A DNA stretch of 64,000 nucleotides from a virus: the IMG/VR virus record IMGVR_UViG_3300021962_000046, positions 1 to 64,000 of that record; one strand, written 5' to 3'. Shown in pieces: positions 1,298 through 43,795 of this stretch. The translations under genes and the position numbers were made by a program. The notes under the pieces are model-generated. The model was not told the DNA's origin. It ran no database searches and worked only from the letters and a program-made list of their open reading frames with translations. Every line of letters starts with the position of its first letter. Position 1 is the stretch's first letter.

Positions 1298-3562
<2,265 letters not shown>

Positions 3563-3563
3563 C

Positions 3564-4190
3564 ATGAGCGAAGTATCAACAAATAAAAAGTTTAACTTAG
3601 TACAATGGTATGCAAGTGGAGGTCTGCTTTTATGGAGCGGAAGTCCAGGATATGGGATATTACAAGATGGCACAACATATGCGTCTGGAAGACTGGAAAG
3701 AATTCAATGGTTTACCTCTAACGGTCAATCAAGAATATGGGCCTCTGGAGCAACAATCGCATTTTTCCAGAATTTTTCAGGTTACTTAGGTTATACATTT
3801 ACGATCAACACAAACAATATAACTTCTTCTGGTTTTCCTTTATACAACACAAATCTACCTGTTTTAGATGCACAACAGGTAAATGCACGAATAGACATAT
3901 TGCAATTCCAAGGCCCAACAACAAATATTCCACAAAATTTTAACGGAAAGGTTATAAAAGCTTGGAAGGCATCAAACAATGGAAACTCATTGCAGACATA
4001 TACATCTGGTGCTGCTCTTAATTTTTTTAATACATTCCAATCTGGAACAACTTATTTAATAGAAAGTGCATCGGGTAGTTTTCCTTACGCTTTTTATAAT
4101 TTAACACCTAATCAAAATTTACCAATACAGCAACCTGATGCTGCTTATGTAAATCAATCGTACACATATCAACTTTCATCAGAGGGATAA
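3564..4190 (+). CDS. Fibre-associated protein ending in half of an Ig-like domain
   Basis: The product is 208 residues. Residues 1-185 repeat the N-terminal module of the previous gene (KFNLVQWYASGG, DGTTYASGR, then WASG). The last 20 residues, PDAAYVNQSYTYQLSSEG, read like the first strands of a putative Ig domain of the He_PIG type (P-x-A-x-V-x-x-x-Y-x-Y-x-L). The rest of that domain is the start of the next gene, in the same frame, after TAA-GAA. The stop therefore cuts a domain. Its role is likely as a linker or assembly partner of the giant fibre protein, which is inference. Start ATG at 3564 follows the previous stop by one base, suggesting translational coupling. Confidence 0.8.
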   Translation: MSEVSTNKKFNLVQWYASGGLLLWSGSPGYGILQDGTTYASGRLERIQWFTSNGQSRIWASGATIAFFQNFSGYLGYTFTINTNNITSSGFPLYNTNLPVLDAQQVNARIDILQFQGPTTNIPQNFNGKVIKAWKASNNGNSLQTYTSGAALNFFNTFQSGTTYLIESASGSFPYAFYNLTPNQNLPIQQPDAAYVNQSYTYQLSSEG

Positions 4191-4193
4191 GAA

Positions 4194-7100
4194 ATGGCAG
4201 TTACTGACTACACATGGAACATTCCAGTAGGCAAGCCAACATGGCTAAATATAGACCCAACAAATGGCTTGTTGACTGGCACACCATCTTCTTCAGATAC
4301 TGGATTTTATTATTTTACAGTAACGGCAACAAACAGGCAAACAGGACAAGTTCTTACTAGGGAATTATCTGTAGGTGTTTCTCAACCTGTATATCCATAC
4401 AATTTAGGTCTTTTATTAAACTGGTATGACAATACCTCCCTATCTAAGTTGGCATCTGGCGATCCTGTATCTTTGTGGGTTGACAAAGGATTAAGACCAA
4501 CAAATTTAGGTCAAACAAACATTTCACAAAGACCAGCAGCATTCATAATTCCAAATGGTGGAAAAGCAGTACAGTTTGAATCTGTAAATATGGAAAATTT
4601 GATTGGCTTAAACACAGTCAATCAAACAATATATCAAAAATGTACAGTTGCATTCTGGTATAATACTTCTTCAACAAGTTCATCCAATCTTTTTGGCCTA
4701 AACAATCAAGATTTAGTCTTACAGGACAGCTTTGGAACATTCCAAAAAGAAAACAATTCTGTGGTTTTTGACAGATACAAGACAAATGGAAACATTCAAA
4801 TAGCAAGTGTTTCAACAACACCCGCTTCTAACTCTTGGCAATTCTTGTCAGCTGTAATAAGTAAAAATTTGAATGGGAATTATGATGTAAGCATTTATGC
4901 TTATGACAAACTAACAAGCACAATGAATTTGATAGGACAAAATCCCAATTCATTTACTTTGGCAGCAAATTCAAATGTGACAGAACTTGTTTATAGACAA
5001 GCAGTCACTATGGGTGCTGCATATAATGGCAACCAAGATGTTGTTGGTTTTTTTGATGGTTATATTTCATCTTCATTTATATATGGAAGTGAATTATCCC
5101 AGTCACAACTTTTGACATTAGCTCAAAATTCAGATCCAACACAACCAGTTTCCACAACAACATCTACAACACCAGTTCCAGCATACTTTTATGTATTAAA
5201 TTCAGTAGAACCAGTTCCAACAACGACTCCAGCACCACCTCCATTCAATCCAAACTCATTAGGCAATCTAGTCAACTGGTATGATGCCAACGATCTTTCG
5301 GTGTATCAAGATGGTGCATCTGTATCTGTGTGGAACGACAAGGCGACTGCCTTGCCACCCGGAACACAAACACAAAACAGGCTAAACTTAACATTAAGCA
5401 CAAGTTCTTATGCTGGGAATGTTCCACCAGTAAAAAGAACTGATGGTAAACCATATTTGGATTTTACAGCCAATAACACAGGCTTCCTAGTATCAAATGC
5501 ATCTTACAATGTAACAAATTTCACATATAAAACATATGCTGCATGGATTTGGATTGATTCTCCTGAAGAAGGAACTTCTTCCAGTTTCAGAAATGCATTC
5601 GGATATGTAAACACAGATGGTTCTAAGACAAATTTCTGCTCATTAGGATTACAGCCTACAAATAACGCAAGACCGGGTTTTTTAAAATATAATGCCAATT
5701 CAACAAGTGTTGCGCCATTCTTCCAAGGTTCAACATCGGTAGGCCCACAAGGAACATGGTGTTTTGTAGCAATAACACTAGATGATTCAAATCTTTCAAA
5801 CAGACTGCCAACAATTTATTATGATATTAATGGAATAGTACAACAGAGAAGATTTGATACACTTTTTGTAGTCGATTCAACTCCAACAAATTGTTCGGTT
5901 GGTATCGGTGGTAGTTTAATTTCAAACGGTTCAGGTGGATTCAATTTCTTAAAGTGGGCTGGAAAAATATCTTCTTGCTTCTTCTATGCATCTCAAACAC
6001 AATCACAAGGAATGTTATCTCTTTCACAACTTCAAGAATTAAGAGACAGAACATATCCCGGCATAAATGATCCAAAAGTACCAACACCAGCACCGTTTAA
6101 TCCTGCAACATTAGGAACATTAACTACATGGCTTGACCAAAATTATTTGTTTGGATGCTACCCAGGCTATAAAGTTTTGCAGCTTCAAAACAAAGGAAGT
6201 CTTGGTGGTTACGCATATTCTTATGATTATTATAATCCAAGCAATCCATATGGAACATCTGCGCTAACTGTCGATCAACAAGATTATTATCCAGCTTTGT
6301 CATTCAATGGCACAAGTGATGGTTACACATTTAATCAAACACAAAGCATAAGTCAATCACAAGCATATACTGTTGCTGGTTGGGTATTTACCCCACCTGT
6401 TTCAACAACCACATCTACTACTTCAACTACATCTACAACTTCTTCCACTTCTTCCACTTCTTCCACTTCTTCCACTTCTTCCACTTCATCTACAACGCCA
6501 CAACCACTTAACAGAAGTTTCTTTGGTTCTTATTCAAGCATAAATGAAATACCATATGGAATTGGTCTAAACAAACAAACAGCAATATCAGAAACATACT
6601 ATCAAACTGGAAATCCACAAACAATATCCAGTAATACACCAATAAACACAGCTTATGGAACATGGTCATTTGTTGCAATAACAAGACAAAATGGAACTGG
6701 GTCTTCAACAGTATTATATGAAGACATAAGTGGAATTGTCAGCCAAGTAGGATCTGCTGTAATAAGCCAAACATCAGCCAATTACACAAATGTCAAAAAC
6801 TGGATCGGCAAATATTCTCCACAAAACTTAGGTGCCAAATATTTTAACGGTTATGTTGGTTCACAATTTGTCTATTCTCAAGCCTTGAATATTGGACAGC
6901 TTCAAATACTAAGAGATTCGACAAACCCAGGCGGTCCTCCAAATGAAGGTCAATTTAGTATTGATTGGGTAGCAACGGCAGGACAAACAAAAACAATACA
7001 AACATCAACAGGCTTGTTGACATCTATAAATTGGGGAGATGGAACAACAACATTTACTGATGGAATAACAACATCTTTTACACACACATACATTAATGCT

Positions 7101-10100
7101 GGAACATATACTGTTAATTTGAATTGTTCTTCAATTGTTGCGCCAAATACAAGCTTAACAATATCTAATCAAAATGTAATCAGAGTAAATACAACTAAAA
7201 TTCCTTCAGTAATAAAAGAACTTGATTTGTCACAAAACAATATCACATCTGTTTCTTTCTATGGAACTAGCATAAACAAAATAAAACTTGGAACTAATCC
7301 ACTAACATCACTAAACACAAGCATTCTTCCAAATATAACATTATTGGATTTGAGCAATTGTAATTTGATAACATCCTTAGATCTTACACAAAACACAGAA
7401 CTTTTAACTCTGAACTTAAATGGATGTACTCTTCTTGATAACATAACAAACTATCAAACTCTTACAAATCTTACATTCCTTGATATATCTGGGACACAAT
7501 TAAATTATAACAATTTAACATATTTCACAAACTTGCAAATATTTTATGGACAAAACGCAAAGATTTCAGGCGATTTTGTTGCAAACAACATGTCAAGTTT
7601 GACAACAATAAACATTGCAAACACAATTCCAACAACCACGACAACTCCACAACCAACAACAAGCACAACAACATCAACAAGCTCAACTTCAACAACAATA
7701 CCACCATTTTTCACAACGAACTGTAGGATTCTACTTGATGGAACAACATATTCTGGCTCTGGTACTACTTGGAATAGCTCGGTTGGTTCTCTAACGGGAA
7801 CACTAGTAAACAGCCCAACATATGATTCAACTCAAAAAGGATTCATACTCAATGGTGTTAATCAGTATATAAATTTAGGAAATGATTCAAGTATTGGGTT
7901 TTCAGGAAACAATCCATTCACAATACAAGCCTTCATAAAAGTAACACAAACAGGAATTGGAAATCAAGCAATAATAAGCAGATGGAACGAAAATGTTGGT
8001 GGAAGTTACCTGTTATACAAGAACACATTTGAAGATTTAAAAGCCAACAGAAATCCTGATTATACTGCACAAAGTCCATATAGCATTCCATTCAATGAAC
8101 AAATTCTTGTAACTATGGTTTACGATGGCAACCTAACAAGAATATACATCGATGATAATTCTGGCGTACCAATAACAGATATTTCAAGTACTGCATTTGC
8201 AGGAAACACATTGGTTGGTTCTTATTTGGTTAATTCAGTAATGTCTGGATTTTTCCAAGGCGAAATATATTCTGTTGCAGTTTATGGACAACCTTTAACA
8301 ATAGATCAAATTAGACAGAATTACAGGGCATGTATTGCAAGATATCAGATACCTCCAGAACCAACAACTACAACATCTACAACAAGCACATCAACAAGTT
8401 CTACAAGCTCTACCACAAGTTCAACGACAAGTTCTACAACCCCAATACCAGTTGGAATTACCAGCATAAATGTGTCTGGTAGTACAGCATTGACAACAAT
8501 AGACTTAACATCAAACAGCATATCATTGTTTGATGGAACAGGCCTTGTAAATCTTTCATCTTTAAATGTTTCTTACAACCCAAGCTTCTCACAGTCTGGT
8601 CTTGTTACATATAACTATCCATCATTGTTGACACTAAATGGAACAGGATGTAATTTCACAACCTTTGATGCTAGAACAACAACTGGTAATTTGTCTTATT
8701 TAAGAACACTTATATTAGATAGAAATTATTCTTTAACGACAATACTTGCAGACAACAATCCGAACTTATTGTCTATTTCTGCTAGTTATTGCGACCTTAG
8801 CAACCTTGATATTTCAAATTCAAGCAGTCTGGTTGTCAATAACCTCACAACAGTTGTAGCCAATTATAATCCGAATTTATCTTCGATAAATCTTACCAAT
8901 GTATTCAAACTTCAAAATCTAAGCCTTGTTGGTTGTAATTTGAATACATCTGAAATTTCAAATATAGTTGTGAAAATATACAATGGTGTTCAACTTTATG
9001 GCACAAGAAATGGCATATTAAGTGTTAACAATCAACTTGAATGGGCACCACCAGATCAAGGAACATTGACAACAATAAACATATTGAAATCAAATTATTC
9101 TTGGTCTGTCATAACAGATGAATATGCGCCATTTTTCATATGGAAATCTGTTGCTGCTGGCGAAACAAAAGGATTTACAATACAAGGCAAGATCAGCAAT
9201 ATTCGCTGGGGTGATGGCACAACATCTGCCGGTCCTTTCAAGGATCAAACAATAACACACACATATACTTCGGCAATAAACAATGCTGTCGTTCTATTTA
9301 ATATTGATTATCCTGTTGTTCCAGATGATCCAACAAACAGATTGACAGAATTCCTTGCAACAGTTGAAAACAACGGCGTGGGAATAAGCGATATAAACAA
9401 TCTTCAAAACTATGTTCAGACAATACAATTAGATAATTCTTACATAACAAAATGGGACAAGACAATTGAAAGCTTGCAGATTTTGATTTTAAGAAATTAC
9501 AAGGGATATTTGACCAATGTAGAAGCTTTGAATCATACATTCCTAACAACATTGGAGCTTTCTGCATCAGACACAGCTGTAGGTTCAGCATTAACAAATG
9601 TAAACATAACCAACTTGAATTCATTGATTGTGTTGAATGTTCAAAATGCATCGGGCTTGGCTGGAACTGGATCTGGAACCAGTCCTTTTTCAAAGATAAC
9701 AGGCTTTGCTGACAACACATCAATAATAAACTTGAACATAAACAATACTGGAATTCAGGTAAATGATTTAAGAACCATAAACAAAGCTAATTTAGTTAAT
9801 TATTATGCACAAGGAAACAATTGTTCTGGCGAATTCAATGCCACAAACACAATTGTTGAGGTTGTTGATATTTCAAACAATAACTTTACTTCTGCTATTT
9901 TCGATGGTTGTGTAAACATATTCGAAGTTTATTTAATAAACAACGCATTAAACAGAACAGAAATAGATAATGTTTTAACCACAATAAGAAATTTGGCGAC
10001 AACAAATTCTATTTATGAAGGATTTATAGATTTAAGAAGCCAAGCAAACAATCAAACGCACGGCTATACAAGCACATTCGGATATATTCAAGATTTAGGA

Positions 10101-13100
10101 TACAGATTAGAATGGGGAGTTCTTATTGATTATGATCCTGACTGGGTCATTACTATTACTCATTCAAAAAATTCCAACTCAGCAATATTTGCTGCTAATT
10201 CTATTAGTTGGTTTACACAGCAAGTTGGCATACCTCTTGTTTTTGAAGGTTCTTTTGAAGGACAACTCAACGATTTAGCTTTTATTGGTACTGGGCCTTA
10301 TGTAACAAAATTCTATCCCGGTTCTTCTCTTACAGATTTAGGATATGATTCAACATTAGAATCAATTATAATTAACAATTTTAATCTGTTTGAAATAGAA
10401 GGACTTCCTTCAACAGTAACAAGTTTAAACCTAAACAACAATTTAATTGAAAATATAAACTTGGAAGAATGTACTAATCTTCAAGATTTATCCATTAATG
10501 TCAATCAAATTCAAAATATAGATTTGTCAGCAAACACATCATTGACATCTCTTCAAATAGCTGAAAACAATTTGTTAAATCTTGACATCGCTGCGAATAC
10601 TCTTCTTACAAGTATAAATTGTTCTTACAATACAAACTTAATCACATTGAATGGATTTGTATTTAACAGAATGATTTACATAGATTTTAGTGGAACAAAA
10701 CTAACTTCTTATATTCCAATAGATTGTACTGGAGCAACCGATCTGACCTATTTGGGTGCAAGAGAAATCAACATTTCCAGCACTCTTAATTTTTCTGGTT
10801 TACAAAACCTTGTCGCTGTTGATGTAACATACAACATGCTTGGCGATATTTATTTTGAAGATTGTTCAAGTATAAAATACATACTGGCATCTTATAATAG
10901 CTTAAGCATAGTATCCATTAATTCAATATTGGCACAAGCTGTCATAAACGAGCAAACCAACAACATAACTTTTGGAATTATAAATTTACAAAACCAAAAT
11001 CCATTGTCTTATCCAACAGGACAAGGAATTGTAGATAAGCAAATTCTTGTGTCTTCACCATTCAACTGGACAGTAAATACAGATTCTGCTCCTGTGGCAC
11101 CCACAACATCAACCACAACAACATCTTCAACAACATCAACTACAATAGCTCCATCTATTGCTGTATTAACGAATTTTGGCAAAAATGCACCACTAACAAA
11201 TCAATATGCAATAACACCAGGAAGCACAACTGTTTTTTCAATTGATTATGATAATAGTGGTTGTACTGTTGGATATTTTAATTTTATCCAATTTATCATG
11301 TATGCAGGAACACTTCCTTCTGGATCTGATCCTTACGGGACATATCTTCAATTTTCATTTGATGGAGGCGTAACCTATCAAACAATTTATGGTCTTGCAA
11401 ATACCTCTCCCGGTCCTTGGATATCAACTACTGCCACAGTAACATTTAATCTTAGTGGAATAAAAGTTCCTGTTGGTCAGAGAAGCATTTACATGAAATG
11501 GGCCGATGGCCCAACAGGAAGCAGAACTGTCTATTTAAATTGTACATCGACATTATTCCAGTACTCAGCACAAGCTTCATGGGCAGAAACAGGATATTTA
11601 AATCTACCTTCTACACCAATTTACCAGCTTGTGGCACAAAGCACAACATTTACAAGACCAACAACAACTACTACAACTCCAGCCCCAACAACAACAACAA
11701 GCACAACATTTGCTCCTACAGGAACTGTAGTTACATATGATTCACTTGCAGCCCAGCCCGGAAACGGAAGTAACATTCCAACATTTAATACTGATGCATA
11801 TCCTTCTTACCCTTACCTACTTGATATTAAATTAAACCCTGGCATTTATTCTTCTGCGAACATGCGTGTAAGGATATCTTTTAAAGCATGGATTACAGCA
11901 TATATTGGACAATTTGCAGGACAAATTAAACTTAATTTTAGTACAGACAATGTTAATTTCACATATATAGAAAGTAGTGGATACCCAGCGTGGTGGGCTG
12001 ATGAAGATGTATATACTGGCTCATGGTATTTTACACCAAATTTCCAACCAACTGTATATCAAGATTTTGTTATTTATTTCAAACAATCACTTGAAAATAC
12101 CAATAGATACCTTCTAGTTAATGTTTACTCAGTAGGAAATATATGGTGGACACAGAAAAATAATAGTTGGGATCGTCAATGGGTTATGAAGCTGGAAAAT
12201 GATGCAGCCACGGTACAACCAAGAGCAACAACAACATCAACAACGACCACCACATCAACCACAACAACTTCTACTACAACAACACCTATTCCAAGCCTAA
12301 TCGTTTTGAATAGCTCAAATTATGCAAATGCAGGATCAACAACGATATCCAATGAAAATTATGTATTTGGAATATCTTATATAACAAATTATACTTGGTA
12401 CAACACACCATTAAACTACATTGAAATATTACTTACAAACGAATCTGGAACTGCTATTCAAGAATTGCAGCTTGATATTGGAAATTCTATTGAAGGTCCA
12501 TTCACAAGAGTTTCAGGAATTCCAACAACATTCTGGGATGATAACACAACTGCTTTTGTAAGATTTGATTTAAGTTTTATAAGAGCGTCAGGAAAAGAAC
12601 TGGTTGTTGATAACATTTACTTCAAACCAGTTTCTGGCCAACCTTTGTTTGCTTTGAACTATACTACAGTTGCAAATGCAGCAACAAATATTTGGCTAGA
12701 CTCTGGGACATTTAATTTACCAAATACATTATCAGCAATATACAAATTAGTATCTACATACCCTTACATACCACAAAATCCAATACAGGTATTAAGACCA
12801 AATCCTAATTTTACTCCAACAAGTATTGATGGGAAAGGCGTTATATTTAATGCCAATGGAACAGCAAATGGTCCGATTAGTAATATAATCCTTCTTTTAA
12901 GAAACATAACTCCAAATGAAACATTCTATTCAGTAACGATAGAAATGAGTACAGATGGCGTAAACTATCTGCCATTTTTAGGACTACCAACCACACTTTG
13001 GACATATTTATCTTATGCTTATGTTTCTTTCGACATAAGAAAGCTAGGAATAATTCCTAATGGTTACGAAAACACAACAATATATTTCAGATATTCCAAC

Positions 13101-16100
13101 ACAACTCAGCTAATAGCAATTTCACAAGCTGATCCAACACTTGGAAGTTCATACTTGTGGACAGATGTTGGCACAGTTAATAGTAGTGGAAAGCTTTCTT
13201 ACATAATAGAAACAAGCTATGCAAACATTTACACATATCCATACTATTCCGATAATTCATCAACTCCTACTGTTTGGTTATTAGATGCAAGCAATATTGT
13301 TAGTTACTCAGGTTCTGGAAACACATGGTACAATCTTGCGCCAAACGATGGAACAAACACTTCTGTAACATTGCAAAATTCACCACAATATTTTGTTTCA
13401 GAAAAGTGTTTCAATCTAAATGGAACAAATCAATCTTTTGTTTTCCCATCTCAGAACTTCATTATAGGTGCAAGACAACCATACACAGCACAAGTATTGT
13501 TCTCTTTAAATTCCTATCCTGCTTCTGGTCAATCATTTACGATATTTACAAATGAAAATATCAATTCAAGCCCAGCGGGTCAATTCCGCATATGGATAGA
13601 CAGTTCAAGACAAATTAAAGGAAATAGAGATACAGCATATCCTTGGTTACTAACAAATACACCAGCCATTTCTTTAAACACACCATATCTTGCAACATTT
13701 GTGTATGATGGAACATTCATGCAGCTTTATGTGAATGATTATCCAGTTGGATCTCAGGCAAGATCTGATACAAATAGTTATTCAGGATCATTTACTCCTG
13801 TTATAGGTGCAAGATATCAAGGAAGTTCTTTGGTAGAAAACCTAAATGGAAAGATTTACCAAGCTGCCTTCTATAGAAGAGCCTTGTCTCAGTCAGACAT
13901 AGTTCAATCATGGAAAGTTGTCACACAAAACTTCAATATTTTGCCAACCACAACTACAACCACATCCACAACTACAACACCAGTACCATATGCACAATAT
14001 GTTTTAGATAATAGTATTGTTATAGCAGATGGTGTTGCTACAAATAACACAAATGCGGAAATTTCTTCTGCACAAACAAGTGCTTATGGAATACAATACA
14101 GCAATTATGGATGTGTTGTAGGTTCTTTAAGAACATTGTCATTGTACATAAATCAACCAAATTCTAATCCATATAATTGGCCAGATGGATATTACACAAA
14201 TGTTACATTACAGTTTTCAACGAATGGAATAAATTATACTCCAATTACTGGCAGAACAGAAAATGGTCAGGAGCTATTTGGTGTTCAAAAAGTAACTTTT
14301 GATTTATCTTCATTGTCTTACAGTTCACCAAATGGGACTATTTATTTCAAATATTACAATGAGACAAGAACACTTTATTGGGTGACCACAAACATAGGAA
14401 TTGATGCAAGTTTGGTTTGGGGTGAAGCTGGTCAGGTATTAACTCCATCTGGATACAAGGGAATTTATCAATTAAGTGCAAACAGCACCGATTTTGATAG
14501 ACCAAAAGAACCAACTACAACCACAACAACAACTACTACAACAACTACACTTCCCCCCGGAAACTATATTGTTCTAGACAATCTATGGAAAACTCAAGGA
14601 AATGCCAACGCATATCCTTTGAATCCAGATGGAACTGCTGTTGAATTGAGAATTAATCCTAACGACTACTCATCTGGTGATGTGGACATGCAAATTACAC
14701 TTAATATGTTTGTTAATGGAACATGCAATCCATCTGGAAATATTGTTCTTGAGTTCAGTTTTGACAATGTAAACTGGATACCAGTTGAAGGAACCACATA
14801 TTCTGGTATTTGGAATGGACCAAGCGACATAAAAGCTGTAACTTTTGACATTTCAACTTCTTATGTAATACCAAGAAATGCAACAAATCCAATTTATGTC
14901 CGTGCGCCAATTAATACATATACAGGGTCTTGCATACCTTATGTTATGTTTAATAATGAAGCTTCTGGAACCACACAATATTGGGATCAAAGCAAATACA
15001 ATGAAGGCTACATGCTAACTAAAATAGTTGCTGATGCATCTATGATACAACCAGTAGCTCAAGCAACCAATGATGCACCTCCAGCACTATCTTTTTCAAA
15101 TGCAACAACAACACCATACCCATCTTTGGTTTTGAATAGCACACAAGCCACATCAAATGGAACATTGCCTCTAACAGCAACTTCCAACAAATACACAATA
15201 ACATATTCAGTTCCATTCTCATATTATGGAACCAATTTAAACAAGCTAAAAATACTTCTCAGAAACAATATGTCTTCTGTAAAGAATTCAACAAATATGT
15301 ATTTTAGCACAGATAATACAAATTACATACTTGTAACTGGAATTCCTCAGTCAACATGGCTCTCTGGAACTTCTGTTCTTGTTGAATTTGATTTGAGCAA
15401 CCTTGTAGTATTACAACAAGCAACAAATAACATTTATTTTTATCCAGCATCTACTGATTTGAATACTGCTGTTGATTATTCAAACGGATCAGGAAAAGCC
15501 ACATTAATATTCACAGATTTGCAACCAACAATCCCAGGAACAAACATAAGTTTTATTTATAACTTAACAGCTGGACAACCAATAAATACGACCAAAATTT
15601 TAACATTAAACAATACTAAATATAGTAATACAGGACAAATAGGATACATACAATTGGACACTCCAAAAACAATAACATTTACCTCAACAAGCTCCACAGG
15701 TGCAATATCCAATCTGGTATTAACACTCCAGAATAATTCCAATCGTAATTTGTATGGTGTTGGGTTGGACTTTAGCACAAATAATGGCGCATCATATTCA
15801 ACATTAATAGGCTATCCAGAAGCAACATGGAAGAATGGAGAAGTAAAAGACATAATATTTGATATTTCTTCTCTGAATATAGTGCCAACAGATGGAATAC
15901 AAAAATCAATTATTGTAAGAAACAATACAACATATCAATCAAACACAGACATTTCATGGAAACTATCAAGCACAGGAAATGCATCATATATTTGGACAGA
16001 TAATTCAGTATCATATACAGTTCCGGGTGGTACTGGATATGCCTTGTATTCGATTTCTACATCAAATATTTCGTCACCTCCTGTTGTAAACAATGGGAAA

Positions 16101-19100
16101 ATACTAGAACTTGATGCAAGTAATTCTGCAAGTTATCCAGGTTATGGAGCTTATTGGAAAGATGTTTCAGGAAGCAGACAACTTGCATTGCTTGTAAACA
16201 GTCCATCATTTGACACAACCTCAAAATCTTTCTTGCTTGATGGAAGCACACAATACATTAAGTTAACAAACTCATCCTTGTATAACTTTTCTGGAAATCA
16301 GTCATTTACATTGCTGGTTTATGGCAAAGTAAATGAAACAGGATTGGATAGCGGTATCATAACAATGCTAAACGAAGGCGTTGGTTATGAATATGCATTA
16401 AATTTGGACTACTCTGGTAAGTTGTTTGGAATTAGAAATGACGCATACCAAATACCAGCTACAACATCAAAAATAGATTTTACAGAAAAGCATCTTTTTG
16501 GTATTGTTTATGATGGAGTAAACAAAAGATTACAAATCTATATCGATGGAATACCAGCTAGTGAAAAAGTTTATTCTGACACAATATTGCCAGACTTACA
16601 AGACCTATTAATAGGTGCATACAAGCAGAACAGCATAATTTCAGGATTTTTATCATCAAGAATAAGTTATGTTTCAGCATATAATAGAAATTTATCTACA
16701 GATGAAATCAAACAATGTTATGTTTCAATTTATTCAAAATTCATAAATGCATATCCAACCACAACAACTCCAGCACCTTCTTTGGTTACAACAAATCTAC
16801 AAGCATTATTCAATGCAAAAGATTATTCAGGTGGAATATATTGGGTAGATAGTATTTCAAACATACAGGCCAGAATTGTAAATTCTGCGACTTATGATAG
16901 TATAAACAAATGTTTTATATTAAATGGAATAAATCAATATTTTGATTTGGGAACTGCTTCACAATTTAATGTTACGGGATCAGCCCCATACACTATACAA
17001 GTTTATTTGAACTTCAACGATATATCTGGGTATCAAACTTTATTTTCTAGCTGGAATACTGGAATAGCTGGCAAACTGCTTTTTATAAAAGATCAAGATA
17101 ATTTTGTAAGATCTAGTAGAAATAGCATTAGTGTAGGCGTATCGCCAACAACAGTAACCTCACAAACTATTTATCTCATAACGCTAACATATGATGGAAC
17201 AGCGATGAGAATATATTTGAACAACACATCTGGAAATGCAATAAATGATCAATTAACAGCTTTAGCAGCAACACCATTTTTAATTGGAGCAAATCTTTCC
17301 TCTAATATTACTACAAATTTCTTAAATGCAAACATATACTCAACAATAGTATACAACAGAGCATTATCTCCTTCCGAAATATCACAAAATTTAAACTACT
17401 TAACAACAATCTACAATCAAACAACAACAACAACATCAACAACACCACAGCCAGAAACAAATGTGTTCTATTTAAATTCTGACATATCTTGTGATGGTGG
17501 AAATGTTAATTTCTGCCCAATCAACATTTCAGGTTATTTGCAAACTTTGGGCGCAACAGAAACACAATTTTTACCTCCAGCATCTGGAAGTACTGGTATT
17601 AGTGCAAACATGGAAGCAGTTGACACTTCTTCTTCCTTTGATTCTTCTCTAAAACCATTGCCACCAAACAGTAGCATTGGAAATGCATACAGAACAGACC
17701 GAGCTTTAAACGGAACATTTTCAGCTGGTTCTTGGAACTTATCAATAAGCTTGCAAAGCACAAGAAGAAAAGGTTCTGGTCATATTGCCACAAGGATATT
17801 CAAATCATCCAATCCAGATGGAACTAATGCAACAGAATTAACAGCAACGACACTAAATGGAAATACATCAGATTTCACTTTGTCTACAATCTCAACATCT
17901 AAAGTTACATGGAACACATCTTCCATAACATTAAACAATGAATACTTGTTTTTCACAGTTGCTTGGGTAATAGATGGATATGCAACAACGACAACAACAA
18001 CACCAATTCCAAGCTTTGTATTATCTGGCTGCGAACTATTGCTTGATGCAAGCGATGCAGATTCTTATCCGGGCTTTGGAAGTGTCTGGTATGACATAAG
18101 CGGAAATCAAAGAGATGCAACAGTAATAAATAGTCCAACATTTAGTGCTGTAAACAAAAGCTTCACACTTAATGGAACAAATCAATATTTCAATCTTGGA
18201 AATAATTCTGCATTTTATAAGAATGGAACTGCGCCTTTTTCTTTATCGATATATTGCGACATAAATTCTACTGCTAATTATAAATCTATAATTTCAAGAC
18301 AAAACAACAATGTTCTTGGAGATTATGAACTATATGTTAATTCATCGAATACTGTTTTTGGAAAAAGAGATGTGTCACCATATGAGACATCTGGTGTTTC
18401 AAATCTAACACCAAATACAAAATATCTAATAACTATGGTTTATGATGGAACATTTTTAAAAGTATTCATAAATGATAAATCTGGAAATGAAATAAATTCT
18501 GGTTCTGTTGTAACTAATTCGCCAAATTTAAATCTACTGGTTGGTGCCAATTACACATCTGATGTTCTAGCTAATTTCTTTGGTGGCAACATCTACGCAG
18601 TAATGTTTTATAATAAAGCACTTGCATTTGAAGAAATCCAAAGAAACATTACTGCTGCAAGATTCAGATTTGGTTTTAGTCCAGAACCTTCCACAACTAC
18701 AACACCATACCCACAAAATTACAATTTGGTATTGTACCCAGATCCAGTTTGCAATATAAATTATAGATTTAAATATGGTTATGTCTCTACTGCTCCATAT
18801 GATTTTTATGGTCCAGAATCTGGATGGTCATTAGCAGCAGGGAATCAGTTAAACACATATGCTTTTTTATGTTTTGGTTTTCCAGTAACAAATGCATATA
18901 CCGCTACAAGCAATGCAATAACTCAAATTTTATATCCAAATAATTATCCTTCGTCTGCACCAAACCCATTAATTGGAATAGGATCTGTGCCAGCTAGTTG
19001 CACAAACTTAGAAATAAACAATCAACCATTAGGAAGAAATGGTTATCCTATAAATCTTAGAAATTTACAAAACCCCAATCAAATTATAAAACTACAAAAC

Positions 19101-21443
19101 TGTGATCCATCTACATTTACAAATGCAGTTCTAAAAGATTGTTTGTATCAAGTTTGGTACAATGCAATTACAAGAAATATAACAAACGGAACGCTTGTAT
19201 TAACTACTAGCAATTCAAGCACAAGATTGAAGGAAGAAGATTATTACCTTTACAATGATTTAGTTCAAAAAGGCTGGACTATAACTTTAGATGCTATTCC
19301 AACCACCACTACCACCACATCAACTACTACCACAGAGGAACCATCTCAGACATTAACAATAAGAAATACAGTTTATTCAAGCGTAGAATCACCAATATTC
19401 AATACCAATGTTGAAATACCACAACAAGGACCACCTTCTGCCTATAAGGGTGTTTTGTATACATATGCAATTCAAAGAAGTGGAGTACCACCTGTTACAA
19501 CCTCAACAACTCCAGCACCGCTTCAAGCAAATATAACAGCTGCTGTTTTAATTCAAAGCGTCACAACCACATCAAGCACAACATCATCGACAGCTGGACC
19601 GGGAACCAGATTTATTTCCATAAAAGTTTCTGATATAGCAACAATAAATTATATTAACTTTGGCGATGGTACAATTATTCGCAATCCATCATCTGAATTC
19701 GCAATAACATATGAATATAAGAACGATGGCCTCTATGATCTTTCAATTTCTGCAAACACTTCTGATATTGAAATAGATTGTAGAAACATAACATACTTGA
19801 CAGTTGAAGATTATATTTCTGGAACACCTGTATCAAGGATTGTTTTAACAAATTCAGCTATTCAATTTGCCGATTTGGATCACGCATTACAAACTTCTTA
19901 TGTTGATTTAAGAAACAATAATATGAATTCAAATTCTGTGACTAGTGCCTTGCAAGCAATAGCTGTAAGTCCAGAATTTAGCGGTTATGTTAATTTGACA
20001 GGGAATTCTATTCCAACAGCCGAAGGCCTAACAGCAGCACAAAATCTGGTCAACAATGGATGGACAGTTCTTATAGACGGTGGTGTTGTGACAACAACAC
20101 CAAGACCTCAATCTGATCATGCCATTTTGTGGGATACCGAAAGTAATCTAACTTGGGATTTCAATTCCTATATCTTATGGGATGAAATAACAACCACAAC
20201 GAATTTATCAAATATAGATTCAACATCTAATGGAACAAATCCACTTCCACAAATGTCTGGCTCTCCAGCTTTCGGAATCGAATTTAATGTTCCTCCTGCG
20301 TTTATACCAAATTATTATGGATATTATAAGTATTTGACATTGAAACTAACAGCAAATAGCAATATAAATGCTGGAACTACAATATCAATACAGGTAAGTA
20401 ATGTTCAAAATCCAGGAAATTCTACTGAGAACTTCATACTTGCTAATGCTTATATTGGTGAAAATATAAATTCTGGAGATGTTTTTGTTGCAAACTTTGA
20501 TATAAGCAGCTTGTATCCTTCATCTGGAACTAATTATATTTGGTTTAAAACAACAAGTGATACAATTAATGTTATCCCACAACTAAACTGGTGTTATAAT
20601 AGCTTCATACTTCCAACAGGAAGTTGGATTTTCAATCAATACTACAATGTTTCAACAGGAAATGGAATATTTTCAATAAGTGTAAACAACTATATTCCAA
20701 CAACTCTTCCTCCACCTACTACAACTCCACTACCAAACTCTTTGTTGTATACTTCAAATGGAATTCTTGAATATGTAAGTTCTGGACCTTTGTTGTGGTA
20801 TAATGTAAATATAACAACAACTAGTACCACTACAACAACAAGTACTACTACAACAACAAGTACTACTACAACAACAAGTACTACTACAACAACAAGTACT
20901 ACTACAACAGAAGCACCAACTAGTACTACTACAACAACTCCACCAATTAGAACAGTACTTGACAGTTCACTTTTGACAAATGATGCTGAAGCACCGATAA
21001 ACAATCCTTCTCAAGTTTATGGCGTAAGCTTTGACACTCTTGGCTTGCAGTTTAGCACAAATCCTCTGCAAGTATTGATATTAAGTTTACAAAACGATAC
21101 AGTTGCAGAAATTACTACATATTCTTTGGATGTAAGCACAAGTTCTACTGGCCCTTGGACAACAATTCAAGGTCAAATATTACAACCTTGGTTGCCAAGT
21201 ATTGACAGAGATATTTACTTTGATGTTAGTGGATTTACAATATCTCAAAATACAAATACCTTGTATTTTAAGTATGTTTCGGGGCAACCAGCAGCATCAT
21301 TTAACATATCGAATTCTGGTAGTTCTACGAGTATTTGGCAAGATACTGGTTATGTTGGAATAGTAGGGACTGGTATTTATAGACTTACAGCATATTCAAA
21401 TATTTCAACAACTACAAGTACAACAACTACTGCAACACCTTAG
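4194..21443 (+). CDS. Giant modular fibre/adhesin protein (5749 residues)
   Basis: One uninterrupted frame. SD GAGGGA (4182-4187) lies within the end of the previous gene. Residues 1-60 are the second half of a putative Ig domain (LNIDPTNGLLTGTP). LamG/concanavalin-like modules follow at about 64-320, 350-633, 635-918, 1170-1390, 3023-3250, 3965-4189, 4200-4410 and 4606-4833, recognisable by L-x-x-W-x-D near the start and VYDG or similar later. PKD-like WGDG modules lie at about 920-1000, 1645-1720 and 5133-5190, followed by leucine-rich-like stretches. Repeated beta-sandwich modules (FSTDN-type) fill 2320-3016, 3265-3963 and 5583-5738. At least fifteen Thr/Ser/Pro linkers separate them. There is no signal peptide or membrane segment. 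A long tail fibre or whisker binding glycans is the likely role. It ends in TAG. No enzyme motif was seen. Confidence 0.85.
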   Translation: MAVTDYTWNIPVGKPTWLNIDPTNGLLTGTPSSSDTGFYYFTVTATNRQTGQVLTRELSVGVSQPVYPYNLGLLLNWYDNTSLSKLASGDPVSLWVDKGLRPTNLGQTNISQRPAAFIIPNGGKAVQFESVNMENLIGLNTVNQTIYQKCTVAFWYNTSSTSSSNLFGLNNQDLVLQDSFGTFQKENNSVVFDRYKTNGNIQIASVSTTPASNSWQFLSAVISKNLNGNYDVSIYAYDKLTSTMNLIGQNPNSFTLAANSNVTELVYRQAVTMGAAYNGNQDVVGFFDGYISSSFIYGSELSQSQLLTLAQNSDPTQPVSTTTSTTPVPAYFYVLNSVEPVPTTTPAPPPFNPNSLGNLVNWYDANDLSVYQDGASVSVWNDKATALPPGTQTQNRLNLTLSTSSYAGNVPPVKRTDGKPYLDFTANNTGFLVSNASYNVTNFTYKTYAAWIWIDSPEEGTSSSFRNAFGYVNTDGSKTNFCSLGLQPTNNARPGFLKYNANSTSVAPFFQGSTSVGPQGTWCFVAITLDDSNLSNRLPTIYYDINGIVQQRRFDTLFVVDSTPTNCSVGIGGSLISNGSGGFNFLKWAGKISSCFFYASQTQSQGMLSLSQLQELRDRTYPGINDPKVPTPAPFNPATLGTLTTWLDQNYLFGCYPGYKVLQLQNKGSLGGYAYSYDYYNPSNPYGTSALTVDQQDYYPALSFNGTSDGYTFNQTQSISQSQAYTVAGWVFTPPVSTTTSTTSTTSTTSSTSSTSSTSSTSSTSSTTPQPLNRSFFGSYSSINEIPYGIGLNKQTAISETYYQTGNPQTISSNTPINTAYGTWSFVAITRQNGTGSSTVLYEDISGIVSQVGSAVISQTSANYTNVKNWIGKYSPQNLGAKYFNGYVGSQFVYSQALNIGQLQILRDSTNPGGPPNEGQFSIDWVATAGQTKTIQTSTGLLTSINWGDGTTTFTDGITTSFTHTYINAGTYTVNLNCSSIVAPNTSLTISNQNVIRVNTTKIPSVIKELDLSQNNITSVSFYGTSINKIKLGTNPLTSLNTSILPNITLLDLSNCNLITSLDLTQNTELLTLNLNGCTLLDNITNYQTLTNLTFLDISGTQLNYNNLTYFTNLQIFYGQNAKISGDFVANNMSSLTTINIANTIPTTTTTPQPTTSTTTSTSSTSTTIPPFFTTNCRILLDGTTYSGSGTTWNSSVGSLTGTLVNSPTYDSTQKGFILNGVNQYINLGNDSSIGFSGNNPFTIQAFIKVTQTGIGNQAIISRWNENVGGSYLLYKNTFEDLKANRNPDYTAQSPYSIPFNEQILVTMVYDGNLTRIYIDDNSGVPITDISSTAFAGNTLVGSYLVNSVMSGFFQGEIYSVAVYGQPLTIDQIRQNYRACIARYQIPPEPTTTTSTTSTSTSSTSSTTSSTTSSTTPIPVGITSINVSGSTALTTIDLTSNSISLFDGTGLVNLSSLNVSYNPSFSQSGLVTYNYPSLLTLNGTGCNFTTFDARTTTGNLSYLRTLILDRNYSLTTILADNNPNLLSISASYCDLSNLDISNSSSLVVNNLTTVVANYNPNLSSINLTNVFKLQNLSLVGCNLNTSEISNIVVKIYNGVQLYGTRNGILSVNNQLEWAPPDQGTLTTINILKSNYSWSVITDEYAPFFIWKSVAAGETKGFTIQGKISNIRWGDGTTSAGPFKDQTITHTYTSAINNAVVLFNIDYPVVPDDPTNRLTEFLATVENNGVGISDINNLQNYVQTIQLDNSYITKWDKTIESLQILILRNYKGYLTNVEALNHTFLTTLELSASDTAVGSALTNVNITNLNSLIVLNVQNASGLAGTGSGTSPFSKITGFADNTSIINLNINNTGIQVNDLRTINKANLVNYYAQGNNCSGEFNATNTIVEVVDISNNNFTSAIFDGCVNIFEVYLINNALNRTEIDNVLTTIRNLATTNSIYEGFIDLRSQANNQTHGYTSTFGYIQDLGYRLEWGVLIDYDPDWVITITHSKNSNSAIFAANSISWFTQQVGIPLVFEGSFEGQLNDLAFIGTGPYVTKFYPGSSLTDLGYDSTLESIIINNFNLFEIEGLPSTVTSLNLNNNLIENINLEECTNLQDLSINVNQIQNIDLSANTSLTSLQIAENNLLNLDIAANTLLTSINCSYNTNLITLNGFVFNRMIYIDFSGTKLTSYIPIDCTGATDLTYLGAREINISSTLNFSGLQNLVAVDVTYNMLGDIYFEDCSSIKYILASYNSLSIVSINSILAQAVINEQTNNITFGIINLQNQNPLSYPTGQGIVDKQILVSSPFNWTVNTDSAPVAPTTSTTTTSSTTSTTIAPSIAVLTNFGKNAPLTNQYAITPGSTTVFSIDYDNSGCTVGYFNFIQFIMYAGTLPSGSDPYGTYLQFSFDGGVTYQTIYGLANTSPGPWISTTATVTFNLSGIKVPVGQRSIYMKWADGPTGSRTVYLNCTSTLFQYSAQASWAETGYLNLPSTPIYQLVAQSTTFTRPTTTTTTPAPTTTTSTTFAPTGTVVTYDSLAAQPGNGSNIPTFNTDAYPSYPYLLDIKLNPGIYSSANMRVRISFKAWITAYIGQFAGQIKLNFSTDNVNFTYIESSGYPAWWADEDVYTGSWYFTPNFQPTVYQDFVIYFKQSLENTNRYLLVNVYSVGNIWWTQKNNSWDRQWVMKLENDAATVQPRATTTSTTTTTSTTTTSTTTTPIPSLIVLNSSNYANAGSTTISNENYVFGISYITNYTWYNTPLNYIEILLTNESGTAIQELQLDIGNSIEGPFTRVSGIPTTFWDDNTTAFVRFDLSFIRASGKELVVDNIYFKPVSGQPLFALNYTTVANAATNIWLDSGTFNLPNTLSAIYKLVSTYPYIPQNPIQVLRPNPNFTPTSIDGKGVIFNANGTANGPISNIILLLRNITPNETFYSVTIEMSTDGVNYLPFLGLPTTLWTYLSYAYVSFDIRKLGIIPNGYENTTIYFRYSNTTQLIAISQADPTLGSSYLWTDVGTVNSSGKLSYIIETSYANIYTYPYYSDNSSTPTVWLLDASNIVSYSGSGNTWYNLAPNDGTNTSVTLQNSPQYFVSEKCFNLNGTNQSFVFPSQNFIIGARQPYTAQVLFSLNSYPASGQSFTIFTNENINSSPAGQFRIWIDSSRQIKGNRDTAYPWLLTNTPAISLNTPYLATFVYDGTFMQLYVNDYPVGSQARSDTNSYSGSFTPVIGARYQGSSLVENLNGKIYQAAFYRRALSQSDIVQSWKVVTQNFNILPTTTTTTSTTTTPVPYAQYVLDNSIVIADGVATNNTNAEISSAQTSAYGIQYSNYGCVVGSLRTLSLYINQPNSNPYNWPDGYYTNVTLQFSTNGINYTPITGRTENGQELFGVQKVTFDLSSLSYSSPNGTIYFKYYNETRTLYWVTTNIGIDASLVWGEAGQVLTPSGYKGIYQLSANSTDFDRPKEPTTTTTTTTTTTTLPPGNYIVLDNLWKTQGNANAYPLNPDGTAVELRINPNDYSSGDVDMQITLNMFVNGTCNPSGNIVLEFSFDNVNWIPVEGTTYSGIWNGPSDIKAVTFDISTSYVIPRNATNPIYVRAPINTYTGSCIPYVMFNNEASGTTQYWDQSKYNEGYMLTKIVADASMIQPVAQATNDAPPALSFSNATTTPYPSLVLNSTQATSNGTLPLTATSNKYTITYSVPFSYYGTNLNKLKILLRNNMSSVKNSTNMYFSTDNTNYILVTGIPQSTWLSGTSVLVEFDLSNLVVLQQATNNIYFYPASTDLNTAVDYSNGSGKATLIFTDLQPTIPGTNISFIYNLTAGQPINTTKILTLNNTKYSNTGQIGYIQLDTPKTITFTSTSSTGAISNLVLTLQNNSNRNLYGVGLDFSTNNGASYSTLIGYPEATWKNGEVKDIIFDISSLNIVPTDGIQKSIIVRNNTTYQSNTDISWKLSSTGNASYIWTDNSVSYTVPGGTGYALYSISTSNISSPPVVNNGKILELDASNSASYPGYGAYWKDVSGSRQLALLVNSPSFDTTSKSFLLDGSTQYIKLTNSSLYNFSGNQSFTLLVYGKVNETGLDSGIITMLNEGVGYEYALNLDYSGKLFGIRNDAYQIPATTSKIDFTEKHLFGIVYDGVNKRLQIYIDGIPASEKVYSDTILPDLQDLLIGAYKQNSIISGFLSSRISYVSAYNRNLSTDEIKQCYVSIYSKFINAYPTTTTPAPSLVTTNLQALFNAKDYSGGIYWVDSISNIQARIVNSATYDSINKCFILNGINQYFDLGTASQFNVTGSAPYTIQVYLNFNDISGYQTLFSSWNTGIAGKLLFIKDQDNFVRSSRNSISVGVSPTTVTSQTIYLITLTYDGTAMRIYLNNTSGNAINDQLTALAATPFLIGANLSSNITTNFLNANIYSTIVYNRALSPSEISQNLNYLTTIYNQTTTTTSTTPQPETNVFYLNSDISCDGGNVNFCPINISGYLQTLGATETQFLPPASGSTGISANMEAVDTSSSFDSSLKPLPPNSSIGNAYRTDRALNGTFSAGSWNLSISLQSTRRKGSGHIATRIFKSSNPDGTNATELTATTLNGNTSDFTLSTISTSKVTWNTSSITLNNEYLFFTVAWVIDGYATTTTTTPIPSFVLSGCELLLDASDADSYPGFGSVWYDISGNQRDATVINSPTFSAVNKSFTLNGTNQYFNLGNNSAFYKNGTAPFSLSIYCDINSTANYKSIISRQNNNVLGDYELYVNSSNTVFGKRDVSPYETSGVSNLTPNTKYLITMVYDGTFLKVFINDKSGNEINSGSVVTNSPNLNLLVGANYTSDVLANFFGGNIYAVMFYNKALAFEEIQRNITAARFRFGFSPEPSTTTTPYPQNYNLVLYPDPVCNINYRFKYGYVSTAPYDFYGPESGWSLAAGNQLNTYAFLCFGFPVTNAYTATSNAITQILYPNNYPSSAPNPLIGIGSVPASCTNLEINNQPLGRNGYPINLRNLQNPNQIIKLQNCDPSTFTNAVLKDCLYQVWYNAITRNITNGTLVLTTSNSSTRLKEEDYYLYNDLVQKGWTITLDAIPTTTTTTSTTTTEEPSQTLTIRNTVYSSVESPIFNTNVEIPQQGPPSAYKGVLYTYAIQRSGVPPVTTSTTPAPLQANITAAVLIQSVTTTSSTTSSTAGPGTRFISIKVSDIATINYINFGDGTIIRNPSSEFAITYEYKNDGLYDLSISANTSDIEIDCRNITYLTVEDYISGTPVSRIVLTNSAIQFADLDHALQTSYVDLRNNNMNSNSVTSALQAIAVSPEFSGYVNLTGNSIPTAEGLTAAQNLVNNGWTVLIDGGVVTTTPRPQSDHAILWDTESNLTWDFNSYILWDEITTTTNLSNIDSTSNGTNPLPQMSGSPAFGIEFNVPPAFIPNYYGYYKYLTLKLTANSNINAGTTISIQVSNVQNPGNSTENFILANAYIGENINSGDVFVANFDISSLYPSSGTNYIWFKTTSDTINVIPQLNWCYNSFILPTGSWIFNQYYNVSTGNGIFSISVNNYIPTTLPPPTTTPLPNSLLYTSNGILEYVSSGPLLWYNVNITTTSTTTTTSTTTTTSTTTTTSTTTTTSTTTTEAPTSTTTTTPPIRTVLDSSLLTNDAEAPINNPSQVYGVSFDTLGLQFSTNPLQVLILSLQNDTVAEITTYSLDVSTSSTGPWTTIQGQILQPWLPSIDRDIYFDVSGFTISQNTNTLYFKYVSGQPAASFNISNSGSSTSIWQDTGYVGIVGTGIYRLTAYSNISTTTSTTTTATP
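6438..6486 (+). repeat. 9-bp tandem repeat encoding Ser/Thr linker
   Basis: About five copies of a TTCTTCCAC unit lie inside the giant fibre gene and encode an STS-type linker between its second and third LamG-like units. Codon choice (TCT TCC ACT) differs from the ACA/AGT-based linkers elsewhere. Confidence 0.85.
20829..20912 (+). repeat. 18-bp tandem repeat encoding (TTTTTS)n linker
   Basis: Four near-identical copies of TACTACTACAACAACAAG occur near the 3' end of the giant fibre gene. They encode a TTTTTS repeat just before the final beta-sandwich module. Identical codons in each copy suggest recent expansion by slippage or recombination. Confidence 0.85.
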
Positions 21444-23634: not shown

Positions 23635-23656
23635 ACAATATATTCAGGAGAATTAG

Positions 23657-26600
23657 ATGCCTTTTACTTGGGAAATAACAAAAGGAAATTTACCAGCTGG
23701 ATTATCACTAGATCCAAATACTGGTGTAGTTTCTGGAATTCCTACAGAAGAACTTGTTTATACAAGTGTTACCGTAAAAGTAAGTGACGGATTTAGTTCT
23801 TCAGAAAGAGAACTTTATTTTGGTTCTTCTCCTAATGAAAAACCATATACGGCAGGGACATTGTTGGATTGGTACGATCCATATGGTTTATTGGAATTAA
23901 GTAATGGAACTGCTGTATCGTCTTGGTCTGACTTCGGATTGAGAAACAAAGATATAAAACAGTCAGTTTCTTCATTGATGCCAAGTGTTTCTTTGACATC
24001 GGGAAATCTTCCAACAATATTGTCATCTGGTGATGATTATCTTTTATCAGATGGAACAGTAAATCATCAACCATATAAGCAAACAACATTGATAATTTGG
24101 GCAAAACCAACCGTAACAAACAACAATAACAGATTTTTATCTTTGTCGTCTGCCAATTCGTTTGGTGATTCATTTGGCGAAATAGGTCAATCTGCTGCTG
24201 GGCAAGCTGGAACATTTACAAGATTTTTCAAGGGAAGTCCTGTAACCAGTCAATCAACAATATTTTCAAATGATAATTTCTCACTAAACAATTGGTATTT
24301 TTATGCAGTAGTTATCAACCCAGACGATTCACAAGGCTATAAAGTAAGATGTTATCGTGACAATGGTGTTGCTGGATCAAATGTAGTTACACTAGAGGCA
24401 TACTCAACAACATTAACTGATTTTACAGAAGTAGACTCACAATTTATAGGTATGCTTGCATCCTTTGATAGTTCTTCTATAGTAAAAAACTTCTTTACAG
24501 GATATGCTGCCGGATCTCACATTTATGGTAGTGCCTTAACAATAAATCAGTTGCAAGAATTAAGAAACAACACAAATCCACAAACAAGAAAAGCTGGATA
24601 CAATGTGTTTACACTAGAATCTAGTGGTGCTGGAGATACTAAGACAATAAATTTAAATGGCACAGCAAGAAAAATAGATTGGGGTGACGGAACATATACA
24701 GAAGGATTTTTAAATGATAGTATAAGTCACACATATAATACAAAAGACTTTTACAATGTAACAGTATATCCTTGGGATCATTATTTCACAGGCGTTGATG
24801 TAAATGGACAAAATGTTCAAAGATGGCTTTATATTCCTGAATATTCTACCAATATGGATTTAAGAAACAATAGTCTTGATGTCTTTCAAACAAGCAATAT
24901 ATTAACTCAAGTTTACAACTATGCGTCTGCATACAATATAAGAAATGGAACATTAAGGTTAGAAGGCCAAAATCCAACTGCAATACCAAACACGGATGGG
25001 CAAAAAGCATGGTATAAGCTTGTAAATCAATATGGCTGGAATGTTACTGCGGATGGTCCACAACCAACATTAGAATTACTTTCATTTACTATCAGTCCGT
25101 CTTTAAACCAAGTAGCTAGAATTGTTCTTAATGGATATGTAGGTCAAATAGATTGGGGAGATGGAGTAGTTACCAATTGTTTTGGTTATTTTAATTATTT
25201 TACTTTTATTCACACATATGAACAATCATACCAAAACATAGTTGTTTCAATAATTGGAGAAATGACATATTTTGAGTGTTCCAACAATTTAAATATTTTA
25301 AATGTTATTTCAGCAAATCCTTCTCTTCAAACCTTTTATATTACTTCTTCATCAATATCAAGCTTTAATTTCACGCTACCAAATCTACAAGAATTATTTT
25401 TAATAAATTGCAGTATTTCATCTTTAAATCTACAACAATTTCCAAATTTAATAACTTTAAGCTTGTACAACAGTCCAACAGTAACCAGTATGACATTCGG
25501 TCAATTCAACCTGTTTCAAACAATTGCTTTAGTAGGATGTTCTATAAATCAATCTACTATAGATTCTTTACTGATCGGTTTAGCGCAAACAAGTAGCAAC
25601 AATATATTAGAACTAAGATTAGACAGAGGAAGCGGTCTTTCTGGCACAAATTCAGCACCAAGCTCTACCGGATTGGCAGCAGCTAATACCATAGCTTGTC
25701 GTGGAATAATAGAAACTTTTACTATATGGAATGGAACACAAAATGTGAATGTCGAATGTGTTAATCCATCGACCACAACCACAACATCAACAACATCGAC
25801 AACAACCACAGAAGCTCCATGCATAAATGTTGTAAGTGCAGAAAGAATAAATTACTCATCATCTGTCTGTTCAAATTTATACTGGAGTAATACTCAACTT
25901 GGTCCACTAGGAGTCCCAGTATATGGAACAATGTCTTTTACTGTTGAAGAAAGTTCAACTTTATATTACACAATAAATTCAAATATACAAGTGTATAATG
26001 GAATTAATTTAAAACTTAACAATAATACTATAAGAAATTTTCCTGGTAGTACTTCCTTCGCATTTGGACAACTAAATGTATCTTATAATGACTTAATATC
26101 AGTAGAATGTTATGTACAAGCAAATAGTGCCATTAGTGCAGGCGAAATAAACGGAACTTTCAACACAGTATTTTTACCAACAACAACGACATTGCCTCCA
26201 CCAGAAACAACTGTTTTATCAAACATAAGTGCAAGTGTGACTGGAAGTGTTGCTCTTCCACCTAATGGTACTTCAACACCATTTCAAATTCAATTCACAG
26301 CACCAGATAATACAGTTAGTTTGGGATATGCATCGCTTACTTTGGCTTTAGTTGCAACATCAAATATTACTCCAACAACATACTTGTCAATAGGATTATC
26401 TTTTGTTCAAAATCCTAGTGAAAGTGATTGGAATGATTATGAGATAAACAGCGTTGGCAATGTTACAGCAGGAACTCCTTTTACAGCAACAATACCTTTA
26501 TCAGAAGAAGTAACATTTGTGCCAAGAAAACCAATGAGTGGAGTAAATTACATCAACATAAGATCAACAAGAATATTCTTCCCAGTAGTACCAACATTCT

Positions 26601-43737: not shown

Positions 43738-43795
43738 AAAACACCTCTTTTGATTTGCTTGCAACCCAAATTTATAACTTAAAAATGAACACGAA

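What the first reader, a model, noticed from the sequence alone, without database searches (positions are those of the whole stretch)
4129..4340. Ig-like domain split by a stop codon between two fibre genes
PDAAYVNQSYTYQLSSEG at the end of the first gene and YTWNIPVGKPTWLNIDPTNG at the start of the giant gene together read as one He_PIG-type Ig domain. They are in the same frame across TAA-GAA-ATG, and an SD is embedded at the junction. Either the stop is read through, or two polypeptides complete one domain by strand complementation, which would join a small protein to a 5749-residue fibre.
Basis: partly seen in the sequence, partly recalled or inferred. Interest (0 to 1): 0.77.

Follow-up and report, generated by a model that had tools for sequence, protein, structure and literature searches.

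The report
Ig domain split between phage genes
In a tailed phage, a small adaptor protein ends with the first strands of an immunoglobulin-like domain and the giant fibre gene beside it starts with the rest, so the two separately made proteins probably lock together by completing one domain; a second fibre of the same phage starts at the same point, and an unrelated giant phage fibre is split at the same loop.

Summary
Pfam He_PIG (PF05345) runs in frame through TAA 4188-4190. The last 30 residues of the 208-aa gene (3564-4190) add 7-12 bits to the giant's truncated domain, a gain reached by 0-4 of 10,000 shuffles and by 0 of the other 176 C-termini on the contig. The break lies in the B-C loop.

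A second fibre gene (23657-27577, paralogue of the giant, 31% identical) starts at the same point of the same truncated domain, has its own Shine-Dalgarno, and has no donor upstream. In an unrelated giant-Ig phage, the same kind of domain is split at the same loop between two adjacent genes, while the orthologue in another phage is unsplit.

A recent nonsense mutation or sequencing error is therefore unlikely. Readthrough is not needed: UAA is the main stop, and the giant has its own SD and ATG. It also cannot explain the second fibre.

Best reading: a split Ig joint. The adaptor supplies strands A-B, the fibres strands C-G, and they join non-covalently. The main rival is a vestigial split.

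The parts
3564..4190 (+). 208-aa adaptor gene: N-terminal domain shared with the 754-aa neighbour (34% identity over 183 aa), then a short linker, then Ig strands A-B at the C-terminus
4098..4187 (+). donor half: last 30 residues of the adaptor (NLTPNQNLPIQQPDAAYVNQSYTYQLSSEG), He_PIG strands A-B (model match from about 4140)
4188..4190 (+). TAA stop, in frame between the halves, falling in the B-C loop of the domain
4182..4185 (+). GAGG, Shine-Dalgarno-like, inside the adaptor's last codons, 8 nt before the giant's ATG
   Evidence: sequence reading
4194..4343 (+). acceptor half: He_PIG strands C-G at the N-terminus of the giant
4194..21443 (+). giant fibre gene, 5749 aa: acceptor half, then concanavalin/LamG-like, PKD-like and leucine-rich-repeat-like stretches with Thr-rich linkers (the last three by reading, PKD weakly by Pfam)
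23657..27577 (+). second fibre gene, 1306 aa, paralogue of the giant's first 319 aa (31%)
23657..23812 (+). second acceptor half: truncated He_PIG starting at the same point (MPFTWEI...); the in-frame stop before it is TAG and the neighbour upstream supplies no donor strand
23646..23650 (+). AGGAG Shine-Dalgarno of the second fibre, 6 nt before its ATG
1298..1828 (+). N-terminal adaptor-like domain of the 754-aa neighbour, there fused in one chain to a Thr-rich stalk (paralogue of the adaptor's first 183 aa)

Best explanation
A split immunoglobulin-like joint. Shown by sequence: one He_PIG domain is divided at its B-C loop between two separately started proteins; a second fibre carries the same truncated half. 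Inferred: ribosomes finish the 208-aa adaptor at UAA and restart 3 nt later at the giant's ATG (termination-reinitiation, helped by the embedded SD). The adaptor's N-terminal domain sits on the tail or baseplate, its C-terminal strands A-B insert into the open sandwich (strands C-G) at the fibre's N-terminus, and this non-covalent completion fixes the fibre. Both fibres may use the same adaptor. The split is old, not a recent mutation.
For: The domain runs through the stop with far more than chance support. The donor half scores like the A-B half of intact domains and so has not decayed (36th percentile with the giant, 52nd with the second fibre). The only other He_PIG on the 106.6-kb contig is at the very start of the second fibre and lacks exactly the same half; the two methionines fall at model positions 25 and 28, in a stretch whose length varies in the family. 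The adaptor tail completes it without a gap (55.2 -> 69.2 bits; 1 of 10,000 shuffles). In 339 He_PIG domains from 108 viral loci only two other broken cases appeared. One is an independent split between adjacent genes at the same loop; its orthologue in another phage is one chain. So fission at this loop recurs. A 3-nt gap is within the range taken as predictive of coupled translation, and such pairs are enriched in subunits of complexes (PMC10666635).
Against: The second fibre has no donor of its own, so either the adaptor serves in trans or a truncated domain is tolerated without a donor. The He_PIG half tests show family membership, not specific pairing. No relative of the locus was found, so selection on the split could not be measured. 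The giant's acceptor half scores low among intact domains (8th percentile).
Confidence: 0.52

Rival explanations
1. Vestigial split: an ancestral adaptor-Ig-fibre gene was cut by a stop or by recombination; the two proteins work separately, the truncated Ig is tolerated as a loose N-terminus, and the adaptor's A-B tail is a leftover.
For: The second fibre manages with no donor next to it. The giant's acceptor half scores at only the 8th percentile of intact domains.
Against: The donor half has not decayed although the two acceptor halves have diverged to 31%. Fission at the same loop recurs in an unrelated phage. Lone C-G halves at protein starts are otherwise absent from the census.
Confidence: 0.26
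2. Stop-codon readthrough: a fraction of ribosomes decode UAA and make a 5959-residue fused protein with an intact Ig domain, anchoring a few giant fibres.
For: Same frame across the stop. The RNA after the stop folds unusually well (z -3.45; -3.26 on repeat).
Against: UAA is the main stop (27 of 39) and is the stop with least readthrough (PMC5289835). 3 of 218 windows of the fibre region fold at z -3.45 or below. The giant has its own SD and ATG. The second fibre has nothing upstream to read through. No tRNA gene was found in the window.
Confidence: 0.1
3. Sequencing error or a recent nonsense mutation in this one phage; in life the gene is one adaptor-Ig-fibre gene.
For: Single metagenomic contig, no second copy found. 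A plain in-frame nonsense TAA does occur in another giant Ig gene (G006) and is absent from its sibling G004.
Against: An SD and an ATG stand at the right distance straight after the stop. The second fibre starts at the same point. The nonsense case in G006 lies within the GL-D-TG segment, not the B-C loop, with no start codon straight after it, quite unlike this site.
Confidence: 0.07

Closest known systems
He_PIG / cadherin-like Ig domain (Pfam PF05345); solved examples SraP (4m03) and a putative alpha-galactosidase (4nzj)
   Same: Sequence signature LPxGLxxDxxTGxIxGTP and strand order; the read-through domain exceeds Pfam's cut-off
   Different: Here the domain is made by two genes, with the chain break between strands B and C
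Donor-strand complementation (chaperone-usher pili; TasA/TapA; Mfa4)
   Same: An incomplete Ig-like sandwich that would be completed by a strand of a neighbouring protein
   Different: Pilins lack one strand, filled by a neighbour's extension in a polymer; here two consecutive strands would come from a separate adaptor, and binding is inferred only
Split Ig-like domains of RTX adhesins (PMC10865825)
   Same: Ig-like fold that is discontinuous in sequence, in long adhesins
   Different: There both halves are in one chain, discontinuous in its sequence; here they are on two polypeptides
Phage Ig-like domains added by programmed frameshift (T3, A2 and others; reviewed in PMC5009743)
   Same: Optional Ig-like domains on phage structural proteins with unusual decoding at the gene junction
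   Different: There a whole Ig domain is appended by frameshift; here one domain is cut inside, in frame, with a new start site
Split Ig in giant-Ig phage contigs G004/G006 (IMGVR_UViG_3300010162_000393 and 3300010167_001103), found here
   Same: He_PIG divided at the B-C loop between two adjacent genes
   Different: Other frame, AT-rich gap of about 47 nt, halves within a tandem-Ig giant rather than between adaptor and fibre

Membership tests
He_PIG domain (PF05345) | Profile score over the curated cut-off (24 bits) | tested here: met
   40 bits giant alone, 46.9 bits across the stop; second fibre 40 bits
He_PIG domain (PF05345) | Strands A-B present in the same chain | tested here: not met
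   Giant starts at profile position 38 and second fibre at 39 of 96; strands A-B end the previous gene
Donor-strand or fragment complementation | Acceptor domain incomplete on its own | tested here: met
   Both fibres lack strands A-B
Donor-strand or fragment complementation | A separate protein carries the missing strands | tested here: met
   Adaptor C-terminus, top of 177 C-termini for both acceptors
Donor-strand or fragment complementation | The two proteins bind and complete the fold | not testable with these tools
Programmed stop-codon readthrough | In-frame extension after the stop | tested here: met
   Same frame across TAA-GAA-ATG
Programmed stop-codon readthrough | Leaky stop or conserved stimulatory signal | tested here: inconclusive
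   UAA, the main stop; hairpin z about -3.3, a level reached in about 2% of windows of the fibre region; no relatives to test conservation
Termination-reinitiation (coupled gene pair) | Gap of -8 to +10 nt with a start codon | tested here: met
   3 nt between TAA and ATG, GAGG 8 nt before ATG; range from PMC10666635

The most novel reading that the evidence does not exclude
One small adaptor is a common socket for alternative fibres: its A-B strands complete the truncated Ig at the start of both the 5749-residue and the 1306-residue fibre, so fibres can be exchanged without altering the tail, and splitting an Ig at the B-C loop is a repeated way for phages to join very long fibres from separate chains.
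Probability: 0.3. Interest if true: 0.78.

Novelty: new variant of a known kind. Interest (0 to 1): 0.6.

Why it matters
How very long phage fibres are attached and exchanged is poorly known. A domain shared by two genes would be a simple, modular joint, testable by co-expression, and it gives a sequence rule (a lone C-G half at a protein start, an A-B half at a neighbour's end) for finding partners of unknown fibres. It also suggests that some 'broken' fibre genes in phage genomes are not broken.

Tried and rejected
Relatives of the adaptor, of the giant's start and of the second fibre's start were sought in viral contigs, phage records and genome contigs by protein, by two-row alignment and by exact junction DNA: none. 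The tools may leave out very near records.

Phage relatives found by the tail sheath (L010, L011, 56-58%) are fragments; no He_PIG, adaptor or fibre-start match was found in their records.

A first, narrow He_PIG model gave no significance for the giant (681 of 5,000 shuffles); it was dominated by one phage family's repeats. Broader models and Pfam gave it. The four 'shuffled' decoys turned out not to be exact permutations.

Joining the halves of the parallel split gave no model gain, because of the long loop; that case rests on the unsplit orthologue.

Recoding was rejected: TAA is the main stop. Rfam found nothing in 1-30000. A bacterial scan for lone C-G halves at gene starts gave none: the He_PIG matches above 25 bits were intact in three loci, and in a fourth a weak match also has sequence upstream of it in the same ORF.

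Full report
WHAT WAS CHECKED. The 208-residue ORF 3564-4190 ends PDAAYVNQSYTYQLSSEG-TAA, and the 5749-residue ORF 4194-21443 starts MAVTDYTWNIPVGKPTWLNIDPTNG, in the same frame across TAA-GAA-ATG. The window is bases 1-64000 of a 106,620-base virus record. Tail-sheath, sheath-stabiliser and head-tail-adaptor profiles mark it as a tailed phage with a contractile tail.

IS IT ONE DOMAIN? Pfam He_PIG scores 40 bits on the giant's start alone (profile 38-85) and 46.9 bits across the stop (profile 12-85). A genome-wide scan with stops read through finds the same stretch, 4140-4343 with one TAA inside. Seven decoy prefixes give 38.6-42.7 bits (the four 'shuffles' among them were not exact permutations). 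A model built here from 191 He_PIG domains of other viruses gives 37.5 -> 47.1 bits; 4 of 10,000 exact shuffles and 1 of 9,911 30-residue windows of the phage's own ORFs do as well. A second model gave 1 of 10,000. Among the C-termini of 177 ORFs the adaptor's ranks first. Its gain lies at the 36th percentile of what A-B halves give in intact viral domains: an ordinary, undecayed half. A first, narrower model failed to show this for the giant.

WHERE IS THE BREAK? In the model the giant's methionine falls at position 25 and the second fibre's at 28, between the strand B consensus (YSQQLTATG) and strand C (TWS); positions 24-25 are often deleted in the family and an insertion point follows. This is the B-C loop. 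The strand names follow the usual Ig/cadherin scheme (general knowledge; the nearest solved domains are SraP 4m03 and 4nzj).

A SECOND FIBRE STARTS THE SAME WAY. The only other He_PIG on the contig is at 23657, the start of a 1306-residue ORF whose first 314 residues are 31% identical to the giant's first 319. It begins MPFTWEITKGNLPAGLSLDPNTG, so it lacks the same half. It has its own SD (AGGAG), the in-frame codon before its ATG is TAG, and the gene upstream ends ...IIERLV in another frame, adding nothing to the domain (39.6 against 40 bits). The adaptor's tail completes it without a gap: 55.2 -> 69.2 bits, 1 of 10,000 shuffles. That two acceptor halves at 31% identity start at one point argues that the split is older than their divergence and is not a sequencing error; this is inference. 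The cross-match shows that the pieces are He_PIG halves, not that they bind specifically.

IS THIS COMMON? DNA-pattern scans of viral contigs gave 108 loci with 339 He_PIG domain hits. Only two other broken domains were seen. One is an in-frame TAA within the GL-D-TG segment (PNGL*LNTTTG) of a giant Ig gene in G006, without a start codon straight after it; the sibling G004 has the frame open for 5799 residues. That is what a plain nonsense change looks like. The other is a true parallel: in G004 and G006 (99.9% identical over 3.4 kb, one event) a giant Ig gene ends ...CDEFDITNDNQYDIIKGDPILIQLTTTFGKKDEPIAH*, and about 47 bases later, in another frame, a 931-residue ORF begins MDSKLINEWTIIYGRLPNGLLLDKETGEISGIPTE. 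In G003/G005 the orthologous region is one chain (...YEIIEGEEINIQLKNDGTPGVFEVFVGVLPTGLMLNQETGLISGIPE..., 46% identical; 43.5% over 600 residues). Fission of a He_PIG domain at the B-C loop has therefore probably happened at least twice. A scan of bacterial genomes for gene starts of this kind found none.

HOW IT MOST LIKELY WORKS. Shown: the division of the domain, the shared start point, initiation signals at both fibres, and the adaptor's N-terminal domain occurring also fused to a stalk in the neighbouring 754-residue protein. Inferred: termination at UAA and restart 3 nt on (gaps of -8 to +10 nt were taken as predictive of coupled translation, and such pairs are 4.5-fold enriched in E. coli for subunits of complexes; PMC10666635); docking of the adaptor's strands A-B into the open sandwich at the fibre's N-terminus; use of one adaptor by both fibres. 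Confidence in the joint is 0.52.

RIVALS. A vestigial split (0.26) is the serious one, because the second fibre has no donor beside it and the giant's acceptor half scores low among intact domains (8th percentile). Readthrough (0.10) is neither needed nor sufficient: UAA is the main stop (27 of 39 genes) and has the least readthrough (PMC5289835), and the fold after the stop (z -3.45; -3.26) is of a strength reached in about 2% of windows of the fibre region. Error or recent mutation (0.07) cannot be excluded without reads.

WHAT IS KNOWN. Donor-strand complementation in pili, split Ig-like domains within one chain in RTX adhesins (PMC10865825) and frameshift-appended Ig domains in phages (PMC5009743) are the nearest ideas. 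No paper noticed in eight searches describes an Ig domain shared by two phage fibre genes; the library holds open-access papers only, and titles and abstracts were read for most hits.

LIMITS.

Noticed in passing
L022 around codon 3102 of its third frame (IMGVR_UViG_3300010167_001103, about base 31091): In-frame TAA in a giant tandem-Ig gene (PNGL*LNTTTG) that the nearly identical sibling contig lacks: a natural nonsense change or assembly error in a 5.8-thousand-residue protein.
   Followed up: partly
window 41431-43764 (-): UvsX-like recombinase of 777 aa with an internal match to a LAGLIDADG homing endonuclease family, which looks like an intein.
   Followed up: no
window 49265-50581 (-): 438-aa protein matching only positions 973-1229 of a 1445-position DNA polymerase profile; the polymerase may be in pieces.
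   Followed up: no
L005:11291-13666 (-), contig about 75.3-77.7 kb: Tail sheath of 791 aa matches a 496-position sheath profile from end to end, so it carries large extra segments; relatives at 56-58% exist in two fragmentary contigs.
   Followed up: no
window 4191-4310: RNA just after the stop folds better than 200 of 200 shuffles (z -3.45); 3 of 218 windows of the fibre region reach that level. Possibly only coding constraint.
   Followed up: partly
window 21507-22553 and 22684-23634: Two neighbouring structural proteins with similar C-terminal segments by eye (WQNSGSN / WQNAGAN); the second matches a virion structural family, phrog_13989.
   Followed up: no
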